64,000 nucleotides of DNA, taken from an uncultured Carboxylicivirga sp. Its GTDB lineage: Bacteria > Bacteroidota > Bacteroidia > Bacteroidales > Marinilabiliaceae. The notes below the pieces were generated by a model. It had not been told where the DNA came from. It did not search any database and worked only from the letters and a program-made list of their open reading frames with translations. Below are positions 1 through 32,557 of the stretch, piece after piece. Each line of letters starts with the position of its first letter. The first letter of the stretch is position 1. The DNA lies in contig CANNEA010000003.1 of assembly GCA_947503525.1 (NCBI GenBank), positions 1 to 64,000 of the forward strand. The letters run 5' to 3'. The position numbers and the translations under genes were made by a program.

Positions 1-105
1 ATAAAACACATTATCTAAAGCTGTATTGCTTTTTTGTCTAATGACAAGGTTACGCAATGTAACGTTTACAGTCTAAGTAATAAAGCTCTTTATATGGCTC
101 TCCTC
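1..105. repeat. Direct repeat, copy A (~105 bp)
   Basis: This stretch is repeated with a few differences at 262-367, an offset of 261-262 bases. Shared blocks include attatctaaagctgtatt, ctaatgacaaggt, and a long run ending in ataaagctctttatatgg followed by ctctcctc. Both copies end in the left arm of a CTCTCCTC hairpin. The copy may extend left of the window. No coding potential is visible. Confidence 0.9.
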
Positions 106-124
106 TTTTTTATATGAGGAGAGC
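97..124. repeat. CTCTCCTC hairpin 1
   Basis: A perfect 9-bp inverted repeat, gctctcctc (97-105) and gaggagagc (116-124), with a 10-nt loop. It has the same arms as the outer ends of the DUF559 element at 359-865, so it is probably a degenerate solo copy of that end. Confidence 0.75.
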
Positions 125-221
125 TGATTAGCAGCTTTCAAAATACATAAACTACTAATGGAAGTTATATGGATATGCTTTTTGTTTTATAACTAGTGTG
201 TTGTAAAAATTGAAATATTAA

Positions 222-250
222 AACTCTCCTCCTTGTTATGGAGGAGAGTT
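222..250. repeat. CTCTCCTC hairpin 2
   Basis: A perfect 11-bp inverted repeat, aactctcctcc (222-232) and ggaggagagtt (240-250), with a 7-nt loop. It belongs to the same hairpin family as 97-124 and 359-381. It lies between the two direct-repeat copies. Confidence 0.75.
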
Positions 251-261
251 GATTAGCATGA

Positions 262-367
262 ATAAATCACATTATCTAAAGCTGTATTACTTTTTTTCTA
301 ATGACAAGGTCACAAGTAATGTAACGTTTACAGTCTAAGCAATAAAGCTCTTTATATGGCTCTCCTC
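262..367. repeat. Direct repeat, copy B (~106 bp)
   Basis: Second copy of 1-105, with a few substitutions and two small length changes. Its right end runs directly into the left inverted repeat of the DUF559 element at 359. The duplication therefore includes the element's boundary. Confidence 0.9.
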
Positions 368-865
368 CTTTTAAAGGAGGAGTACCTCGACGAAGGAGAG
401 GGGAGGTGGTTTTTATATCATTTTTATGCTACCTTGGTTATTAAATGGTTCTTAACTAATGAAAAGCAATCGCCCTGAACTGAAAAGCAGAAGAAAGAGA
501 TTAAGAAATTATTCTACGCCAGCTGAGTGTGAGCTTTGGAAATATTTAAAATCAAAGAAAGTTTGTGGTCTTAAGTTTAGACGACAACATTCAATAGGTA
601 ATTTCATACTTGATTTTTACTGTCCTGAACTAAAGCTTGGAATTGAACTTGATGGAGAATATCATATTTGCAATGAAGATAATGATAGCATAAGAGATCG
701 TAAATTAAAACAACAAGGGATAACAATATTAAGGTATGAGAATTTAATGGTATTTGAACATATTGATACACTAATAGATGAAATTGAAGATTTCAACACT
801 AATAGAGTTTAAAACCACCTCACGATTCGGAACTCATCGTACTCCTCCTTATTAAGGAGGAGAGC
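359..865 (+). mobile_element. DUF559 element bounded by 55-bp inverted repeats
   Basis: The left end (359-413) and the reverse complement of the right end (811-865) are both exactly 55 bp and match at 40 of 55 positions without gaps. The strongest blocks are the outer gctctcctcctt hairpin, the ggaggagtac block and the inner gaggtggtttt. The only gene between them is the DUF559 reading frame at 459-812, whose stop codon touches the right repeat. Related units flank the sulfatase gene at 30799-32382. No transposase is present and no clear target-site duplication is visible. Mobility is inferred; the symmetric architecture is seen directly. Confidence 0.7.
459..812 (+). CDS. DUF559 / Vsr-like endonuclease-fold protein
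   Basis: A 117-residue protein of the DUF559 family, related to very-short-patch-repair-type nucleases with the PD-(D/E)XK fold. Visible family features are TPAE near residues 20-23, RRQ at 41-43, ILDFYCPE around 50-57 and GIELDGEYH at 61-69. Asp52, Glu63 and Asp65 are the likely metal-binding acidic residues. The length is normal for the family. There is no signal peptide, so it is cytoplasmic. The gene stands alone between two 55-bp inverted repeats and is unrelated to the carbohydrate genes that follow. The family function is not established; a DNA nicking or cutting role linked to the flanking repeats is inference. A mismatch-repair Vsr role is unlikely because no dcm-type methylase is nearby. 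Confidence 0.85.
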   Translation: MKSNRPELKSRRKRLRNYSTPAECELWKYLKSKKVCGLKFRRQHSIGNFILDFYCPELKLGIELDGEYHICNEDNDSIRDRKLKQQGITILRYENLMVFEHIDTLIDEIEDFNTNRV

Positions 866-3018: not shown

Positions 3019-4530
3019 ATGAAACAACTAACAATATGCATTTTGAGTTTGATGCTATTTGGCATCACTACATTTGCTCAAAATAAGAAACCAAACATCG
3101 TTATCATTTATGTGGATGATTTAGGTTATGGCGACTTAAGTTGCTATGGTGCCACAGAAGTGCAAACCCCTAATGTTGATAAATTGGCCAATGGAGGTGT
3201 TAAGTTTACCGATGGCCATTGTTCAGCCGCTACCTGCACACCATCACGTTATTCATTATTAACTGGCCGTTATGCCTTTCGAAAAGATGCTGCCGTATTA
3301 CCGGGAGATGCCCCATTACTGATCAGTACTGACAGGGCCACTCTGCCCGGAATGTTAAAGCAAAATGGTTATAATACGGCAGTTGTTGGTAAATGGCATT
3401 TAGGCTTAGGTAATGGCAATGTAGATTGGAATGGAAAAGTAGCTCCAGGTCCCTTGGAAATTGGTTTTGATTACAGCTACCTGATTCCATCAACCGGTGA
3501 CCGTGTGCCTTCTGTCATGTTGGAAAACTACCATGTGGTTGGTCTCGATCAGGAAGACCCAATTGAAATCAGCTACAAGAAAAAAATAGGTGATGATCCG
3601 ACTGGTATCGAAAATCCCGAACTGTTGCGTTATCCATCCGATGATTTCCATGGGAAAACGATTGTGAATGGCGTGAGCCGGATTGGTTATATGTCGGGAG
3701 GAAACTCCGCTCGCTTTCGTGATGAAACCGTTCCCTACCAGATGTTGAACAAAGCACGTTTGTTTATCGATGAAAGCAAGAAAGAACCGTTTTTCCTGTA
3801 TTTTGCCTTCCATGATATACATGTGCCACGCTTGCCGGATGCACCGTTCATTGGTGCCACCAATATGGGTGTGAGAGGCGATGCAATCGTGCAAATGGAT
3901 TACATCACCGGAGAGTTAATCAATCATCTTGAGCTTAGAGGCCTGAGCGAAAATACCATTATTGTTTTTTCAAGCGACAACGGCCCCGTGCTAGATGATG
4001 GTTATTTAGATGAATCTGTTGAGTTGCTTGGCAAACATCAACCTGCAGGTCCTTTTCGTGGCAACAAATACAGTGCCTACGAAGCAGGTACTCGTGTGCC
4101 AACAATCGTATACTGGCCAGGTACCCTGGAATCTAAGGAGAGTGATGCCTTAGTGACTCAAACCGACTTATACGCATCTTTTGCAGAGTTAATTGGACAT
4201 CAGTTGGATAAGACTGAAGCACCAGATAGTGAAGCCATGTGGTCAACTTTTGCAGGTCAATCTGATGCAGGCCGTGAGTTTCTACTGGAAGAATCAGTGA
4301 CACTTTCACTACGCCATGGTCAATACAAATATATCCATCCCACCAAGAAAAAACCAAGCTGGATAAAGGTTGAAAAAAATATTGAAGCAGGTACATCTAC
4401 TGAACCGCAATTATTCGATTTATCAAAAGACACTGGCGAACAAGTGAATATTGCAGCGAAGAATAAAAGACTGGTTAAGAAGATGCAGGCCGAGATTGAA
4501 CGAATCAAAAACAATGAAGTAACTCGCTAG
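3019..4530 (+). CDS. S1 family sulfatase
   Basis: A 503-residue formylglycine-dependent sulfatase. Residues 1-20 are a Sec signal peptide ending TTFA. The metal-binding pair is Asp33-Asp34 in YVDDLGYGD. The modification motif is C73-T-P-S-R, whose Cys would become formylglycine. VVGKWHLG and FSSDNGP give the remaining active-site Lys, His, Asp and Asn. It hydrolyses sulfate esters, presumably on oligosaccharides in the periplasm. It is the first gene of a run with a second sulfatase 31 bp downstream, a GH2 enzyme and a third sulfatase. The Cys-type motif needs a sulfatase-maturing enzyme encoded elsewhere. Substrate position is not inferable. Confidence 0.93.
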   Translation: MKQLTICILSLMLFGITTFAQNKKPNIVIIYVDDLGYGDLSCYGATEVQTPNVDKLANGGVKFTDGHCSAATCTPSRYSLLTGRYAFRKDAAVLPGDAPLLISTDRATLPGMLKQNGYNTAVVGKWHLGLGNGNVDWNGKVAPGPLEIGFDYSYLIPSTGDRVPSVMLENYHVVGLDQEDPIEISYKKKIGDDPTGIENPELLRYPSDDFHGKTIVNGVSRIGYMSGGNSARFRDETVPYQMLNKARLFIDESKKEPFFLYFAFHDIHVPRLPDAPFIGATNMGVRGDAIVQMDYITGELINHLELRGLSENTIIVFSSDNGPVLDDGYLDESVELLGKHQPAGPFRGNKYSAYEAGTRVPTIVYWPGTLESKESDALVTQTDLYASFAELIGHQLDKTEAPDSEAMWSTFAGQSDAGREFLLEESVTLSLRHGQYKYIHPTKKKPSWIKVEKNIEAGTSTEPQLFDLSKDTGEQVNIAAKNKRLVKKMQAEIERIKNNEVTR

Positions 4531-4561
4531 TCGTGTACTAAATAAAATAAACCTCACATCA

Positions 4562-6001
4562 ATGAAGAATCTAAAGTATATATATCCGATAATCATTGCC
4601 TTTGCTTTGTTTTCCTGCAAGGCTAAGGAAAAGACAGAAGGCACAAAGAAACAAGCTAATATTCTTTTGTTATTAGCTGATGATATGGGTTATGGTGAAT
4701 TGGGCAGTTATGGTCAGGAGCGAATTCAAACCCCTGTTCTTGACAATTTGACAAAGCAAGGCATGCGTTTTACTGATTTTTATGCCGGTAACGCCGTCTG
4801 TTCACCATCTCGTGCAGTATTAATGACCGGTAAATCATCATCATTCAATACCATTCGGGGTAACAGTGGACATTTTGATAATGATAGATGGATGCGTGTT
4901 GCACTTAAAAAGGATGATGTTACGATGGCTGAAATGTTGGGGCAGGCTGGTTACCAAACAGGATTTGTTGGTAAATGGCATTTGGGCGACCCAAATGATG
5001 TGTCTACCTGGGCTCACAATCGTGGTTTTGATTATGCGGTGCAGGAGCAATGGGGTTCACGCTTTGGAGGGCTTGAGTTTGATGAGCGTATGCATAGAAT
5101 TAATGGCATGCAGGATTCAATATTCTATGATGTAAATGAATGGGAGTGTCTGGATGATTTCAGAACAAATTTAGCGTTTAACTGGCTTGATAAACTCAAT
5201 ACTGAGAAGCCTTTCTTTTTATTTATGTCGTATCGTGCACCACATGGTCATGAATACACAATTGGTAATAATACGCTTTATCAGGATAAAGACTGGCCTG
5301 AGGCAGAACGCCTGCATGCTTCAAAAATCACATTGCTGGATAAGCAGGTTGGGCGTATGCTGGCCAAGCTGGAAGATTTGGGTGAACTCGATAATACTTT
5401 GATTATTTTTACAAGTGATAATGGTGCTCATAAAGAAGGCCGCGGACATAGTCCAAATTTCTTTAAGAGCAATGGGAAACTCAAAGGTATAAAACGTGAT
5501 ATGTATGAAGGGGGTATTCGTGTGCCAATGATAGCTTATTGGAATGGTCATATTAAAGCAGGAAGTACCTCACATCATATTTCAAGCGCACAGGATTTAA
5601 TGCCTACATTTGCAGAAGTAGCTGGTATTACTATTCCGGAAGCATCTAATGGCGTTTCTATTTTACCTGCATTAACCGGTGAAGAACAAATGGAGCATGA
5701 ATTTTTAAATTGGGAATTTCAGCTGGATGGCTGGTATCGACTCATGCCAACCGGAGGTTTTCGTCAGTCGGCACGTATGGGTAAATGGAAGGCTGTGCGC
5801 TATGGTATTGATTCACCAACAGAGTTATATGACCTGAATAACGACATTAAAGAACAACATAATATAGCAGCAAAACATCCTGAAATTGTTGAAATGATGG
5901 AATTAGCATTTAAAAACCGTTCAGAGAACGACGCATTTCCAGAGGGTGGTGTTATACTGGATTATAAGCCATCGGACAGATATAAATCAGCTCAGCAATA
6001 G
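4562..6001 (+). CDS. S1 family sulfatase, lipoprotein
   Basis: A 479-residue sulfatase with a lipoprotein signal (LFSC, Cys19), so it is probably membrane-anchored. Asp40-Asp41 lie in LADDMGYGE, and the formylglycine precursor is Cys80 in CSPSR. FVGKWHLGDP and FTSDNGAH complete the active site. The C-terminal part (WELDGWYR-like stretch, then ARMGKWKAVRYG and LYDLNNDIKEQHN) is the usual S1 subdomain. It lies 31 bp after the previous sulfatase and 14 bp before a GH2 gene, so joint transcription is likely. The pair of sulfatases plus a GH2 suggests desulfation before exo-cleavage. Confidence 0.93.
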   Translation: MKNLKYIYPIIIAFALFSCKAKEKTEGTKKQANILLLLADDMGYGELGSYGQERIQTPVLDNLTKQGMRFTDFYAGNAVCSPSRAVLMTGKSSSFNTIRGNSGHFDNDRWMRVALKKDDVTMAEMLGQAGYQTGFVGKWHLGDPNDVSTWAHNRGFDYAVQEQWGSRFGGLEFDERMHRINGMQDSIFYDVNEWECLDDFRTNLAFNWLDKLNTEKPFFLFMSYRAPHGHEYTIGNNTLYQDKDWPEAERLHASKITLLDKQVGRMLAKLEDLGELDNTLIIFTSDNGAHKEGRGHSPNFFKSNGKLKGIKRDMYEGGIRVPMIAYWNGHIKAGSTSHHISSAQDLMPTFAEVAGITIPEASNGVSILPALTGEEQMEHEFLNWEFQLDGWYRLMPTGGFRQSARMGKWKAVRYGIDSPTELYDLNNDIKEQHNIAAKHPEIVEMMELAFKNRSENDAFPEGGVILDYKPSDRYKSAQQ

Positions 6002-6015
6002 GGCATATCAGAAAA

Positions 6016-8493
6016 ATGACAAGCATGAAGTATTTTATAATTAAATTAATTTTTCTGGGATTGATAGCCAGCAGTTGCACTGAACAAGCTGACAGCCGTC
6101 GGGTAGAATTATTAGATAGCAACTGGCTATTTATTAATGAGGATGTCAAAGGTGCTGAACAAGTTAGCCTTAAGACTGATGACTGGGAATCGGTTACAGT
6201 GCCCCATGACTGGGCTATCAAGGGACCCTTTGATGAGGCAGTAGATAAGCAAAGTGGCATTATTAAGCAGAATAATGAGAAGATCGCAACAGAAAAGACG
6301 GGCCGTACTGGTGCCCTACCACATGTTGGGATTGGTTGGTATCGAAATAGTTTTACGGTGCCAGACTTTGATTCGGATAAAACGGTACTGTTAACCTTTG
6401 ACGGTGCCATAAGCCAAGCACAGGTTTATATCAATGGCACAAAAGTAGGAGAATGGAAAAATGGCTATAACTATTTCTACTTTGACATAAGCCAATATCT
6501 TCAAAAAGGCGATAACCTGTTGGCTGTTCGCCTGGAGAATCTGCCTCATTCATCTCGCTGGTATCCTGGAGCAGGCCTGTTTCGTAAGGTACAGTTAGTT
6601 GTTAAAGATAAGGTCTCATTCCAACATTGGGGGCATTTTATCACAACTCCTCAGGTGTCTGCCGAACTTGCTACCGTTAATATTAAAAGCAAGGTTAATG
6701 GCGATGATGTACATGTAGAGACATTAATCAAGGATGAAGCTGGAAATGTTGTAGCTCGTAATTATTCAGAAGAAACAAACGGCAATGAAATAGAACAAAT
6801 ATTGGAAATTGCTAAGCCTTCCATTTGGGATATTGAAACACCCAATCTTTATTATGCCGAGTTAAGTTTGTATCAGAATGGTGTCTTGAAAGATAAGGAA
6901 ACCATTCGTTTTGGTATTCGAAAAATTGAGTACAATGCTGATAAAGGCGGATTTTTATTAAACGATAAGGTGACTAAATTTAAAGGTGTTTGTTTACATC
7001 ACGATTTAGGACCTTTGGGAGCAGCCATTAACAAAACTGCCCTAAAAAGACAATTGACAATTCTAAAAGATATGGGGTGCAATGCCATTCGTTCGTCTCA
7101 TAATATGCCATCATTGGAGCAGTTGGAATTGTGCGATGAAATGGGTTTTTTGTTTTTAGCAGAAAGCTTTGATGAGTGGAAAAAGCCAAAGATGAAAAAC
7201 GGTTACAACCTGTTTTTTGAGGAGTGGGCCGAAAAAGATGTGGTGAATCTGGTACATGCTACGCGTAACCATCCTTGCATTGTGATGTGGAGTTCGGGCA
7301 ATGAAGTACCCGATCAATATGGTGAAGCCGGCGTAAATAGGGCAAAGTGGCTGCAGGATATTTTTCATCGTGAAGATCCAACACGGCCTGTTACTGTAGG
7401 AATGGATCAAGTGGAGACCACCATGAAAAGCGGATTTGGTGCTGTGATGGATATTCCCGGCTTGAACTATCGCTTACATCTATACGAAGATGCTTACGAG
7501 AAATTTCCCCAGGGAATGTTACTTGGTTCAGAAACGGCGTCTACAGTGAGTACGAGAGGTTTTTATCGTTTTCCTGTGGAACAGATAAAAGATGATTATA
7601 ACGCAACTAAAGCACAGAAAAAAGCTATTTATGGCGATACCTATCAGTGTTCGTCATATGATTTAGAATATTGTGGCTGGTCTAACCTACCGGAGGATGA
7701 TTTTGTGCTGCAGGATGATAAACCATGGGTGATTGGCGAGTTTGTATGGACAGGCTTTGACTATCTTGGCGAACCAACACCATTCGACCAATTCTGGCCA
7801 TCACGAAGCTCCTACTTTGGTATTTGCGATTTAGCAGGCTTGCCAAAAGATAGATATTATTTGTATCGCAGTCGTTGGAATACAAAAAACGAAACCTTAC
7901 ATATATTGCCACACTGGAACTGGGAAGGTCGAGAAGGCGAGATAACACCTGTTTTTGTATACACGAACTATAGCAGTGCCGAGCTATTTGTTAATGGCCT
8001 TAGTAAAGGCATTAAAACCAAAACTAAAGGAGAGAGCCCACAGCATCGTTATCGATTAATGTGGATGGATGTAAAGTATCAGCCAGGAACACTTAAAGTA
8101 GTTGCTTTTGATGATAACGGAAAAGCTGTTGCTGAAAAAGAACTGCACACAGCTGGAAAGCCCTATCATCTTGAACTAAAGGCTGATCGAGATGTGATCG
8201 CTGCCGATGGAAATGATTTGAGTTATGTAACGGTTTCTGTCGTTGATAAAGATGGAAATTTATGCCCAAGAGCTGATAATCAATTAAGGTTTGATGTTGA
8301 GGGTGCTGGCAGATTTAAAGCTGTTTGTAACGGTGATGCTACTTCTTTAGAGATGTTTCATTTACCAACCATGAAGGCATTTAATGGACAATTGGTAGTG
8401 ACGATACAATCTTTAAAGCAAGCAGGTGATATTAAATTAATAGTAAGAGGTGAAGAGGTGAAGTCTTCAACTTTAACATTGAGTGCGGAATAG
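6016..8493 (+). CDS. GH2 family glycosidase (beta-galactosidase-like), lipoprotein
   Basis: An 825-residue GH2 enzyme. Translation may begin at 6016 or at the Met codon at 6025, which gives a more standard lipoprotein signal (LIASSC, Cys21 in the longer numbering). The N-terminal sugar-binding jelly-roll includes VPHDWAI and GIGWYRNSF. An immunoglobulin-like domain follows, then the TIM barrel from about residue 310. The acid/base is probably Glu430 in SSGNEVP and the nucleophile Glu506 in LGSETAS. C-terminal beta-sandwich domains follow, with one starting around GKPYHLELKADRD. GH2 members act on beta-galactosides, beta-mannosides or beta-glucuronides; beta-galactosidase is the best guess from its context among agarase-family genes. 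It sits inside a sulfatase operon. Confidence 0.9.
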   Translation: MTSMKYFIIKLIFLGLIASSCTEQADSRRVELLDSNWLFINEDVKGAEQVSLKTDDWESVTVPHDWAIKGPFDEAVDKQSGIIKQNNEKIATEKTGRTGALPHVGIGWYRNSFTVPDFDSDKTVLLTFDGAISQAQVYINGTKVGEWKNGYNYFYFDISQYLQKGDNLLAVRLENLPHSSRWYPGAGLFRKVQLVVKDKVSFQHWGHFITTPQVSAELATVNIKSKVNGDDVHVETLIKDEAGNVVARNYSEETNGNEIEQILEIAKPSIWDIETPNLYYAELSLYQNGVLKDKETIRFGIRKIEYNADKGGFLLNDKVTKFKGVCLHHDLGPLGAAINKTALKRQLTILKDMGCNAIRSSHNMPSLEQLELCDEMGFLFLAESFDEWKKPKMKNGYNLFFEEWAEKDVVNLVHATRNHPCIVMWSSGNEVPDQYGEAGVNRAKWLQDIFHREDPTRPVTVGMDQVETTMKSGFGAVMDIPGLNYRLHLYEDAYEKFPQGMLLGSETASTVSTRGFYRFPVEQIKDDYNATKAQKKAIYGDTYQCSSYDLEYCGWSNLPEDDFVLQDDKPWVIGEFVWTGFDYLGEPTPFDQFWPSRSSYFGICDLAGLPKDRYYLYRSRWNTKNETLHILPHWNWEGREGEITPVFVYTNYSSAELFVNGLSKGIKTKTKGESPQHRYRLMWMDVKYQPGTLKVVAFDDNGKAVAEKELHTAGKPYHLELKADRDVIAADGNDLSYVTVSVVDKDGNLCPRADNQLRFDVEGAGRFKAVCNGDATSLEMFHLPTMKAFNGQLVVTIQSLKQAGDIKLIVRGEEVKSSTLTLSAE

Positions 8494-8524
8494 GGTTTAG
8501 AAACGAAATTGTAAAAAAAATCAT

Positions 8525-9913
8525 ATGTATAGGTTTTTAATCATTGTTTGTGTTGCTATAGTACAATTGATATTTAGTTCAGCACAGGCACAAAAAAACA
8601 ATAAACCAAATTTTATTATTATCCTGGCTGATGACTTAGGTTATGGAGATGTTGGTTTTACAGGAAGTACACAAACAAAAACACCAAATATTGACGCATT
8701 AGCCAATGCCGGAGTAACTTTTACTCAGGGCTATGTATCAGCACCTGTTTGCGGACCATCTCGTGCCGGAATCATGACAGGCCGTAATCAAGTGAATTTT
8801 GGTTTTGATAATAATCCAATCGTTGATTTACCACAATTTGACGAGAACTTCGTCGGCCTTCCAGTGGATGAAACAACCATTGCTGACCGTCTTGCTGAAT
8901 TGGGTTATGTCAATGGTTTAATAGGGAAGTGGCATTTGGGTGAAGCCGAGCATTTTCACCCTTTAAAAAGAGGTTTCCATGAGTTTTGGGGTTACCTGGG
9001 CGGCGGACACAATTATTTTGCCAATAAACCCGATGGGAAACCTTATCCATACAAGATTTTAAGTAATTACAAGGAGCCGCAGCCTATCTCTTACATTACA
9101 GATGATAAAGGAGATGAGTGTGTTGACTTTATTCGTCGTCATAAAGATGAGCCATTTTTCCTGTATGCCTCGTTTAATGCACCGCATGCGCCAATGCAGG
9201 CTACTGAAGCAGACCTTCAACTTTATGCACATATAAAAGACGAGAAACGTCGAACTTATTGTGCCATGGTCCACCGCCTGGATGTGAATGTAGGTAGAAT
9301 AATGAGTGAGCTCAAAAAGCAAAAGATAGATGAGAATACAGTAGTTGTCTTTTTTAGTGATAATGGAGGTCCATGTCATCACAATGCGTCCTTAAATATG
9401 CCTTTACGAGGTTCAAAAGGTACGCTTTTAGAGGGCGGTATTCGAGTGCCGTTTGTAATGAGTTGGCCTGAGCAGTTAAAAGCAGGCACTAAATATGATT
9501 ATCCAATCTCCAGTTTGGATCTTACGCCCACTTTTGTGGCCATGGCTGGAGGAACAGCTAATGCTAAAGCCAATTTAGATGGTGTGAATATTTTCCCATT
9601 TATCAACGGAGAAGAAACGAAGAGGCCTCATGAGGAAATGTTATGGCGATTTACCATTAGCGCCGGTATTCGTGAAGGCGACTGGAAATTGATTCGCATG
9701 CCCGATCGTTTACCAATGCTTTATAATGTCAAGGAAGATGTGTCGGAACAAAACAATGTGGCCGACCAGCATCGAGAAAGAGTTGAGCAGATGCTTAAAA
9801 AGCTGGGCGATTGGGATATATCTCGCCCACAGGTACTGTATCTCGAAGGAAATAAGTGGAGACGTGAACAGGTGGATTTATATGACAGGAAGTACCAGTT
9901 AGTACAACCTTAG
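8525..9913 (+). CDS. S1 family sulfatase
   Basis: A 462-residue secreted sulfatase with a signal peptide ending around SSAQA. LADDLGYGDVGF carries the metal-binding Asp pair, and Cys76 in CGPSR is the formylglycine site. LIGKWHLGE and FFSDNGGP complete the active site. It shares the pattern GSTxxxTPNID, CGPSRAGxxTGR and a GGGHNYF block with the sulfatases at 47794 and 54177, so these three look like one subgroup. It is the last gene of the first operon, followed by a 425-bp gap. Confidence 0.93.
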   Translation: MYRFLIIVCVAIVQLIFSSAQAQKNNKPNFIIILADDLGYGDVGFTGSTQTKTPNIDALANAGVTFTQGYVSAPVCGPSRAGIMTGRNQVNFGFDNNPIVDLPQFDENFVGLPVDETTIADRLAELGYVNGLIGKWHLGEAEHFHPLKRGFHEFWGYLGGGHNYFANKPDGKPYPYKILSNYKEPQPISYITDDKGDECVDFIRRHKDEPFFLYASFNAPHAPMQATEADLQLYAHIKDEKRRTYCAMVHRLDVNVGRIMSELKKQKIDENTVVVFFSDNGGPCHHNASLNMPLRGSKGTLLEGGIRVPFVMSWPEQLKAGTKYDYPISSLDLTPTFVAMAGGTANAKANLDGVNIFPFINGEETKRPHEEMLWRFTISAGIREGDWKLIRMPDRLPMLYNVKEDVSEQNNVADQHRERVEQMLKKLGDWDISRPQVLYLEGNKWRREQVDLYDRKYQLVQP

Positions 9914-30662: not shown

Positions 30663-30780
30663 ACCACCCCGCCTTTGGTACCGCTTCTAAAATTCAGGAG
30701 GGGAAGTATTCACATCACTCTCCTCCTATTAAAGGAGAGCATGTTCCGCTTAAACGGAAAGTACTACGAAGTGGGGAGTT
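30663..30780. repeat. Palindromic repeat unit L (upstream of sulfatase)
   Basis: A ~118-bp unit that begins accaccccg and ends tggggagtt. It contains a ctaaaattcaggagggg block (30687-30703), a hairpin ctctcct/aggagag (718-724 with 733-739 of the 30,000s) and a second small stem ttccg/cggaa (30744-30759). The same blocks occur in reverse order and orientation at 32457-32557, so the sulfatase gene is bracketed by an inverted pair. The ctctcctcc-hairpin half also matches the ends of the DUF559 element. Confidence 0.8.
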
Positions 30781-32456: not shown

Positions 32457-32557
32457 AACCACCTCCCCTCTACGAGGTACTCCTTTTCTAAAGGAGGAGA
32501 GGGACACAACACCGTCCCCTCCTGAATTTTAGGAGGGGTGTCGATAGACGGGGTGGT
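32457..32557. repeat. Palindromic repeat unit R (downstream of sulfatase)
   Basis: A 101-bp unit opening aaccacctcccctct and closing ggggtggt. It contains a perfect stem cccctcct/aggagggg (32516-32538, 7-nt loop). Its reverse complement aligns with unit L at 30663-30780. The reverse complement of its first half (32457-32503) shares ctctcctcctt, gagtacctcg and agaggggaggtggtt with the left end of the DUF559 element (359-413). Confidence 0.85.

What the first reader, a model, noticed from the sequence alone, without database searches (positions are those of the whole stretch)
359..865. DUF559 nuclease gene exactly bounded by 55-bp inverted repeats: a possible compact mobile unit
Seen directly: the ends 359-413 and 811-865 are equal in length, align ungapped as inverted repeats (40 of 55), and the single DUF559 gene fills the space between them. 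Established: DUF559 proteins have a PD-(D/E)XK-type nuclease fold related to Vsr. Inference: the nuclease acts on these hairpin ends and spreads or maintains them, in the way RAYT transposases are tied to REP/REPIN sequences. I know of no established role for DUF559 in such a system.
Basis: partly seen in the sequence, partly recalled or inferred. Interest (0 to 1): 0.85.

Follow-up and report, generated by a model that had tools for sequence, protein, structure and literature searches.

The report
Nuclease gene between triplex-forming repeats
A tiny DNA-cutting enzyme gene sits between two inverted copies of a folding DNA repeat, and comparison with many bacteria suggests that gene plus repeats form a small jumping element, which would explain where a widespread but orphaned family of bacterial repeats (E. 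coli "BoxC" among them) comes from.

Summary
Each end is a three-block motif: pyrimidine/purine hairpin plus mirror third block. That is the architecture of the "intrastrand triplex" repeats (BoxC/PIT/TM) that Holder et al. 2015 found in >260 genomes without a mobility gene nearby. Standalone DUF559 genes carry such motifs in 52 of 67 loci; long fused DUF559 ORFs in 0 of 7. In E. coli two copies lie between ycjD (DUF559) and fabI. Repeat number correlates with DUF559 in Bacteroidota and with the ycjD-locus copy in E. coli. In three genomes the unit is duplicated at unrelated sites, with limits at or inside the motifs, once with 1 mismatch in 537 nt; two relatives lack that unit. Gene-less elements of 62-121 nt in the same genome share both termini with it. 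Best reading: a REPIN/RAYT-like element whose enzyme is a Vsr-like nuclease. Action of the enzyme on the ends is inferred; some repeat-rich genomes lack DUF559.

The parts
359..413 (+). left end: triplex-type motif (hairpin 362-382, third block 403-413 GAGGTGGTTTT, spacer 20 nt), third block facing the gene
   Evidence: folds as ssDNA, z -3.4
459..812 (+). DUF559 (PF04480) Vsr-like nuclease gene, 117 aa
   Evidence: AlphaFold2 pLDDT 88.6; Foldseek 3hrl, I-Bth0305I, Vsr
811..865 (-). right end: same motif inverted (third block 811-821, hairpin 842-862), third block facing the gene
   Evidence: folds as ssDNA, z -4.4
97..124 (.). related palindrome GCTCTCCTC...GAGGAGAGC upstream
222..250 (.). 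related palindrome AACTCTCCTCC...GGAGGAGAGTT, without a third block (0.56/0.44)
1..382 (.). direct repeat 1-121 / 262-382 (90%), continuing from the end of contig C8
32457..32557 (.). inverted pair of triplex-type motifs WITHOUT a gene (AACCACCTCC...GGGGTGGT); hairpin 32516-32538 has a perfect third block, the left hairpin is below my stem threshold
   Evidence: ssDNA fold z -4.3
30718..30739 (.). pyrimidine/purine hairpin with partial third block (0.86)

Best explanation
The window holds a gene-bearing copy of a small mobile element of a class that I found described in no paper I could search: motif - DUF559 gene - inverted motif. The ends are intrastrand-triplex-type motifs (a hairpin with a pyrimidine and a purine arm, plus a third block that is the mirror of the purine arm). 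The one gene encodes a Vsr-like (EDxHD-type; label from listings and recall) PD-(D/E)XK-related nuclease. Shown here by comparison: standalone DUF559 genes are flanked by such motifs in several phyla; DUF559 types keep motif types; units are duplicated with limits at or inside the motifs; gene-less miniatures with the same termini are dispersed in the same genome. Inferred: the nuclease recognises the folded motif when it is single-stranded (lagging-strand template or during repair), nicks or cuts at it, and host replication or recombination copies the piece between two motifs to a new place; gene-less inverted pairs are mobilised in trans, as is proposed for RAYT transposases and REPINs. I saw no target duplication at the near-identical pair, which fits a non-DDE route.
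For: Flank test: inverted-repeat score above every null placement of the own locus in 32 of 66 loci; score >=30 in 32 of 66 against 66 of 6721 nulls. Intergenic only: Y/R hairpins 6.06/kb beside DUF559 vs 0.53/kb elsewhere, other hairpins 1.21 vs 1.11/kb. Perfect mirror third block in 107 of 148, 19 of 25 and 17 of 23 hairpins in three data sets vs 1% or less in shuffled flanks. Fused DUF559 0 of 7. Nearest motifs inverted in 22 loci, direct in 5 (sign test p 0.0015). Duplicates: G551 1 mismatch in 537 nt at two sites, G026 90% over 482 nt, G242 85.5% over 490 nt. Unit and motifs absent at that junction in G554 and G449. Same termini with and without gene. Cognate end within 220 nt of 5 of 5 close DUF559 copies and 0 of 22 other DUF559 places in that genus (p 1.2e-5). 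Mantel r 0.31, 0 of 2000 permutations. Genome level: odds ratio 11.2, 4.0 stratified over nine families, p 0.014. E. coli: median 19 vs 7 copies with/without the ycjD-locus copy.
Against: No biochemistry. Repeats without DUF559 exist: 9 of 62 repeat-rich Bacteroidota genomes lack a strong match (G470 has 61 copies), E. coli O157/O55 records have 14 places without the ycjD-locus copy, and G449 has 38 ends and no close cognate gene. In the window's own order one hairpin pattern shows only a weak link: >=3 copies in 10 of 59 DUF559+ vs 6 of 90 DUF559- genomes. 15 of 67 standalone loci and 6 of 14 plasmid-collection loci have no full motif by the strict rule; the latter include both E. coli ycjD loci, whose hairpin stem holds a mismatch and whose motifs lie downstream only. 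Hairpins >=1 kb away from DUF559 in the same loci also have the third block (25 of 41), so the motif is not confined to the gene. The window's own unit is single copy; its site in the relative G153 has one intron-split palindrome and no DUF559, which is gain or loss, not proof of movement. The E. coli comparison follows phylogroups and ycjD was not checked row by row. Holder et al. saw no triplex in vivo or in duplex DNA.
Confidence: 0.7

Rival explanations
1. DUF559 is a host-serving structure-specific nuclease that relieves or repairs replication blocks at triplex repeats; the repeats spread by another route (slippage, recombination, another element) and the gene stays near them by selection or hitchhiking.
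For: Repeat-rich genomes without DUF559 exist; Holder et al. 2015 link the motifs to instability and discuss replication stalling (sections 15, 18 and 20 part 1 read); alleles at two E. coli sites differ by more than a clean insertion.
Against: A repair gene need not lie between inverted cognate motifs, nor be duplicated with them as a unit, nor share termini with gene-less miniatures; 5 of 5 vs 0 of 22 cognate adjacency.
Confidence: 0.17
2. Homing-like spread: the nuclease cuts existing motif copies and the gene is copied into them by recombinational repair (as homing endonucleases do); no true transposition to new sites.
For: Nearest characterised enzyme among solved structures is the homing endonuclease I-Bth0305I (the first hit, 3hrl, is an uncharacterised DUF559-like protein); DUF559 genes often sit between long direct repeats (score >=100 in 14 of 66 loci vs 3 of 6721 nulls); the G153 site has a lone palindrome where G000 has repeats plus gene.
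Against: Unit B of G551 lies where G554 and G449 have no Y/R hairpin and no end motif in the corresponding stretch; gene-less miniatures have precise termini at many sites (T before and A after in 13 of 13).
Confidence: 0.2
3. Solitary Vsr-type mismatch-repair or defence nuclease; the repeats are incidental.
For: Fold and sequence relation to Vsr; Caulobacter VsrA, a DUF559 protein, causes an SOS response when the methylase ScmA is lost (passages); weak PADLOC hit mREase_II E=1.7e-5 for the window protein.
Against: Does not predict the three-block motifs, their absence at fused genes, or the duplicated units.
Confidence: 0.06
4. Ordinary transcription terminators or attenuators that happen to be palindromic.
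For: Hairpins near gene ends are common.
Against: Non-Y/R hairpins are not enriched (1.21 vs 1.11/kb); terminators need no mirror third block; Holder et al. cite earlier work that found no terminator activity of the E. coli motif.
Confidence: 0.02

Closest known systems
REPIN / RAYT (REP-associated tyrosine transposase) systems
   Same: Short inverted palindrome pairs dispersed in the genome, a single small gene between two copies of the same repeat, cognate repeat and enzyme types, gene-less miniatures (RAYT side partly recalled; papers seen in listings, and passages).
   Different: Enzyme is a Vsr-like nuclease (DUF559), not a Y1 HUH transposase; ends carry a mirror third block, no GTAG in the window ends; the spacer between hairpin and third block may hold its own hairpin.
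BoxC / PIT / intrastrand triplex motifs (Holder et al. 2015, PMC4666352: abstract, sections 15, 18, 20 part 1, passages and part of Table 1 read)
   Same: Same three-block architecture; the copy between ycjD and fabI is letter for letter Table 1 no. 9; five inverted pairs among 23 copies in MG1655.
   Different: [quoted passage not shown] no mention of ycjD); the window motif has a 20-nt spacer before block 3, larger than their 1-6 nt loops.
I-Bth0305I homing endonuclease and Vsr (PDB 3r3p, 1vsr)
   Same: Fold: Foldseek E=3.9e-5, TM 0.67 (3r3p); TM 0.60, E=0.13 (1vsr).
   Different: Not in an intron; flanked by cognate repeats; only about 120 aa.
MITEs and their parent transposons (general knowledge)
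   Same: Gene-less miniatures share termini with a gene-bearing unit.
   Different: No DDE transposase; no target-site duplication seen in the G551 pair.
CGTC-tagged REPs (Di Nocera et al. 2013, PMC3733652, passages read)
   Same: Orphan palindromes without a known transposase.
   Different: Their core (from recall) was found in the flanks of 1 of 79 DUF559 loci only.

Membership tests
DUF559 (PF04480), Vsr-like nuclease | Pfam model match and conserved putative catalytic residues | tested here: met
   E=1.3e-29; E23, D52, E63, D65, H69, D76 invariant in the 67 aligned proteins; catalysis itself not tested
DUF559 (PF04480), Vsr-like nuclease | fold of the Vsr / I-Bth0305I group | tested here: met
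   model pLDDT 88.6, pTM 0.81; 3hrl E=2.4e-7, 3r3p E=3.9e-5, 1vsr TM 0.60 but E=0.13
Intrastrand triplex motif (BoxC/PIT/TM) | three blocks: Y arm, R arm, mirror third block | tested here: met
   both window ends perfect over 9 nt, spacer 20; shuffles 1% or less
Intrastrand triplex motif (BoxC/PIT/TM) | loops of 1-6 nt in the published search | tested here: not met
   spacer 20 nt in the window; published limits; so same architecture with a long spacer, not a member by that definition
Intrastrand triplex motif (BoxC/PIT/TM) | forms a triplex in vitro | not testable with these tools
   folding tools here do not model triplexes
REPIN/RAYT | inverted pair of palindromic repeats flanking the gene | tested here: met
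REPIN/RAYT | Y1 HUH tyrosine transposase | tested here: not met
   the only ORF of 80 aa or more in the unit is DUF559
REPIN/RAYT | GTAG tag on the palindrome | tested here: not met
   no GTAG in 359-413 or 811-865 on either strand (sequence)
CGTC REP | CGTC-type core beside the gene | tested here: not met
   1 of 79 loci
DDE transposon / MITE | target-site duplication | tested here: inconclusive
   none seen by eye at the two G551 units; not surveyed
Mobile element (any) | same unit at unrelated sites; sites without it in relatives | tested here: met
   for relatives: G551, G026, G242 duplicates; G554/G449 lack the G551 unit; base-exact empty site not obtained; the window's own copy not shown to be mobile

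The most novel reading that the evidence does not exclude
DUF559/YcjD nucleases are the mobilising enzymes of a pan-bacterial class of transposable element whose ends are intrastrand-triplex motifs; the orphan BoxC/PIT repeats of E. coli, Neisseria, cyanobacteria and others are gene-less members or remnants of it. It would be a transposition system built on a Vsr-like nuclease and a folded three-strand DNA signal.
Probability: 0.6. Interest if true: 0.95.

Novelty: categorically new. Interest (0 to 1): 0.88.

Why it matters
Intrastrand-triplex repeats are widespread in bacteria (more than 260 genomes in the 2015 survey), and that survey found no gene that could move them. A cognate nuclease gene, present in laboratory E. 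coli as ycjD, makes origin, spread and cost of these repeats directly testable. It would also give a function to a domain family of unknown function and, if the mechanism holds, add a new enzyme type and a new kind of end signal to the known ways in which DNA moves.

Tried and rejected
(1) DUF559 as partner of CGTC-tagged REPs: tested, 1 of 79 flanks, rejected. (2) One hairpin pattern as proxy for repeat load in the window's order: weak (10 of 59 vs 6 of 90); the phylum test with a pattern taken from many loci was stronger (53 of 167 vs 9 of 225), but phylogeny accounts for part of it (odds ratio 11.2 falls to 4.0). (3) Clean empty site for E. coli ycjD: none found; the four strains fetched without it (L141, L142, L144, L145) carry an efflux operon beside fabI (PMC12817139 passages). 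(4) Clean empty sites for two E. coli motif copies: the four alleles fetched carry other repeat-like DNA or lack more than the motif. (5) Cross-locus flank pairs as null: contaminated, I think, because different genomes share the repeat type; replaced by within-locus placements. (6) My first third-block test used one strand only and was replaced. (7) Terminator reading: rejected. (8) Whole-genome counts in Python were not possible, so counts rest on tool patterns. (9) First stratified test left out family f123 (odds ratio 3.8, p 0.024); with it 4.0, p 0.014. Rows dropped before counts: five edge loci, eight fused loci and one locus with too few null positions (80 in all); one of the eight fused loci; one 298,830-nt record and one plasmid; L036/L107 counted once (and L037/L131 look the same), judged from equal contig length and position.

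Full report
OBSERVATION. The two 55-nt ends match at 40 of 55 positions; no other placement of that geometry in the window exceeds 29. The mismatches are confined to the loop and the spacer; the identical blocks are GCTCTCCTCCTT, AAGGAGGAGTAC and GAGGTGGTTTT. The gene between them is DUF559. Upstream lie related palindromes in a direct repeat, and the window begins at a contig start. In the same window an inverted pair of such motifs without a gene lies at 32457-32557.

WHAT THE ENDS ARE. Read on the strand that gives pyrimidine arm, loop, purine arm, the third block GAGGTGGTTTT is the mirror of the purine arm AAAGGAGGAG with G opposite G and A or T opposite A. That is the rule of purine-motif intrastrand triplexes. 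Holder et al. 2015 (PMC4666352; abstract, sections 15, 18, 20 part 1, passages and part of Table 1 read) describe such motifs, known in E. coli as BoxC or PIT, in more than 260 genomes. They show that the single-stranded E. coli sequence forms a triplex in vitro but find no sign of it in duplex DNA or by footprinting in vivo, and state that they never found a mobility function near the motifs. The text holds no mention of ycjD, DUF or endonuclease.

ASSOCIATION WITH DUF559. Sources: 30 loci from a search that found DUF559 in 59 of 149 genomes of the order, 80 loci from genome contigs (by record titles Bacteroidota, Cyanobacteria, candidate phyla such as Magasanikbacteria, Chloroflexota, Nitrospirae, Nitrospinae, Planctomycetota, Pseudomonadota and others), and 14 loci from the plasmid collection. 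Of the 80, 67 are standalone genes with usable flanks. (a) The inverted-repeat score between upstream and downstream 350 nt beats every null placement in the own locus in 32 of 66; score >=30 in 32 of 66 vs 66 of 6721 nulls. Direct-repeat score >=100 in 14 of 66 vs 3 of 6721. (b) In intergenic DNA only, hairpins with a pyrimidine and a purine arm occur at 6.06/kb beside DUF559 and 0.53/kb elsewhere in the same loci, while other hairpins do not differ (1.21 vs 1.11/kb); 55 of 67 loci have at least one. (c) A perfect mirror third block of 7-9 nt lies within 45 nt of 107 of 148 such hairpins (19 of 25 and 17 of 23 in the other two sets), against 1% or less in shuffled flanks; of hairpins at least 1 kb away in the same loci 25 of 41 have it too, so these are probably dispersed copies. 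(d) 52 of 67 standalone loci have at least one full motif within 350 nt, or just inside the gene's ends; 0 of 7 fused DUF559 genes have one beside their ORF; 8 of 14 plasmid-collection loci pass the strict rule. (e) Where full motifs lie on both sides, the nearest pair is inverted in 22 loci and direct in 5 (92 loci examined, 61 without motifs on both sides, 3 ambiguous, one duplicate dropped; sign test p 0.0015).

COGNATE TYPES. In the window's genome the window gene and a distant trio at contig C5 (36-40% identical to it) have different hairpin arms (unit scores 14-19), while the trio (72-98% identical) share theirs (29-44). Over the seven genomes, pairs at least 72% identical score 29 to 72, except two pairs where one member has no detected motif; pairs at most 63% identical score 12 to 31, with one such exception. 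The ranges overlap slightly. Over 66 loci, similarity of the arm follows similarity of the protein (Mantel r 0.31, 0 of 2000 permutations). In the genus of G551 the end motif TCAATCCTCCTGTCCTCCTTCTCC lies within 220 nt of 5 of 5 DUF559 copies at least 73% identical to the G551 protein and of 0 of the 22 other DUF559 places (my reading of the two tables; p 1.2e-5). The three genomes of that genus without a match to this protein have 1, 0 and 0 copies of the motif; the nine others have 1 to 38. G449, with 38, has no close cognate gene, which is against a simple rule.

MOBILITY. G551 carries two copies of a 537-nt stretch, motif - gene - motif, 3.25 kb apart on one contig, with one mismatch and unrelated flanks. 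The left limit is the first base of the left motif in both; the right limit lies inside the right motif, whose outer arm follows in both, in copy B after about 44 nt of other sequence. G026 has two copies on different contigs, 90% identical over 482 nt, with homology beginning at the first bases of the left motif. G242 has two, 85.5% over 490 nt, ending at the last base of the right motif. Copies from 13 genomes were compared by BLAST, not all copies of each. Of the rest, G130 has one 81% pair with motifs on both sides, G013 has copies in arrays whose limits I did not resolve, and the others gave no such pair. At the G551 unit B, the relative G554 has 136 nt between the aligned neighbours where G551 has 824; G449 also lacks units A and B; those three stretches hold no Y/R hairpin and no end motif. 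DNA identity of about 71-79% prevents a base-exact empty site. Gene-less elements: 13 of 17 fetched G449 places hold 93-163-nt inverted motif pairs with termini CAATCC...GATTG, preceded by T and followed by A in 13 of 13. G551 itself has such elements of 62-121 nt at 7 of 12 fetched places, with the termini of its gene-bearing unit. G391 has one between two genes where G551, G449 and G554 have none.

THE WINDOW'S OWN SITE. In the genus relative G153 the neighbours on both sides are kept (78-80% DNA identity). Between them is one palindrome of the window type, split by a group II intron (RVT_1 plus maturase domain), and no match to DUF559. This shows a difference in state, not its direction; the gap between contigs C8 and C3 of the window's genome is not closed.

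GENOME LEVEL. Over 392 Bacteroidota genomes, at least 3 copies of a hairpin pattern occur in 53 of 167 with a strong DUF559 match (E<=1e-10) and 9 of 225 without (odds ratio 11.2); counting any match at E<=1e-3, 55 of 222 vs 7 of 170 (the strong group includes fused genes; the window's own genome has 0 copies of this pattern). Stratified over nine families (160 genomes; the other families with repeat-rich genomes have no contrast), the ratio is 4.0, p 0.014. In E. coli, ycjD is annotated as DUF559 between sapF and fabI; its locus is at least 80% covered in 3333 of 5426 genomes. Two motif copies lie between ycjD and fabI, none was seen upstream; one of them is letter for letter no. 9 of Holder's Table 1. 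That repeat has a median of 18 places per genome. In a spread of 60 records, 37 chromosomes whose best place covers at least 97% of the ycjD-fabI 60-mer have 14-30 places (median 19) and 21 without have 1-20 (median 7). This is a proxy for ycjD, follows phylogroups, and some records without it have many copies. In the window's order a single hairpin pattern showed only a weak link.

ENZYME. AlphaFold2 model pLDDT 88.6. Best solved relatives: 3hrl (an N. gonorrhoeae endonuclease-like protein), the homing endonuclease I-Bth0305I and, weakly by E-value, Vsr. E23, D52, E63, D65, H69 and D76 are invariant in the 67 aligned proteins. YcjD had been predicted as PD-(D/E)XK, related to Vsr (PMC1189080, passages). 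A DUF559 protein of Caulobacter, VsrA, is needed for the SOS response of a methylase mutant (PMC12907096, passages), which supports nuclease activity in vivo and also a repair role.

MECHANISM. Shown by comparison: duplication of motif - gene - motif, shared termini, cognate pairing, a nuclease fold. Inferred: recognition of the folded single strand, nicking or cutting, copying through host replication or recombination, and action in trans on gene-less pairs. A homing-like route is the nearest alternative; unit B of G551, where two relatives show no motif, speaks for true insertion.

LITERATURE. Ten searches of the open PMC library listed no paper joining DUF559, ycjD or COG2852 with BoxC, triplex or REP repeats; subscription papers and most preprints were not searchable. 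Di Nocera et al. 2013 (passages) pose the same question for CGTC REPs, but those are not beside DUF559 (1 of 79). RAYT/REPIN papers were seen in listings only, except passages of PMC6006769.

Noticed in passing
L188, about 5366-7900 (G153:C140): A group II intron (RVT_1 and maturase domains) sits inside a palindrome of the window type, splitting it into its two arms.
   Followed up: partly
L012:3073-3436 (G000:C8:287072-287435) and window 1-39: Contigs C8 and C3 share 39 nt and probably adjoin; the assembly breaks in the palindrome repeats.
   Followed up: partly
L013 (G000:C5:320000-336000): Three further DUF559 genes of the same genome lie among repeats of a different motif type (CTTCCCC..GGGGAAG), two of them as a recent tandem copy.
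   Followed up: partly
L152 vs L241, L242; L150 vs L243, L244: At two E. coli intergenic sites the BoxC allele of one strain is replaced by other, mostly repeat-like DNA in other strains.
   Followed up: partly
L080, L092, L105, L114, L116, L129, L132: DUF559 domains inside ORFs of about 390-1370 aa have no triplex motifs beside the ORF (0 of 7); possibly domesticated relatives.
   Followed up: partly
G449 (12-genome genus search): 38 copies of one end motif without a close cognate DUF559 gene.
   Followed up: no
G470, G170, G289, G194, G403, G517, G549: Repeat-rich Bacteroidota genomes without a DUF559 match at E<=1e-3; a different partner enzyme or loss of the gene.
   Followed up: no
L245-L247 (G551:C19): Three gene-less elements of 100, 62 and 72 nt share one 12-nt flank and differ in length.
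   Followed up: no
L047 downstream flank (Sinorhizobium): A DUF559 gene beside CTCTGCCCTGCCGGGCATCTCCCCC..GGGGGAGAT repeats that look like the RIME repeats of rhizobia (name recalled); they fail my strict three-block rule.
   Followed up: no
window 3019-9913: ORFs after the unit look like sulfatases and a glycoside hydrolase of a polysaccharide-use cluster (reading of translations only).
   Followed up: no
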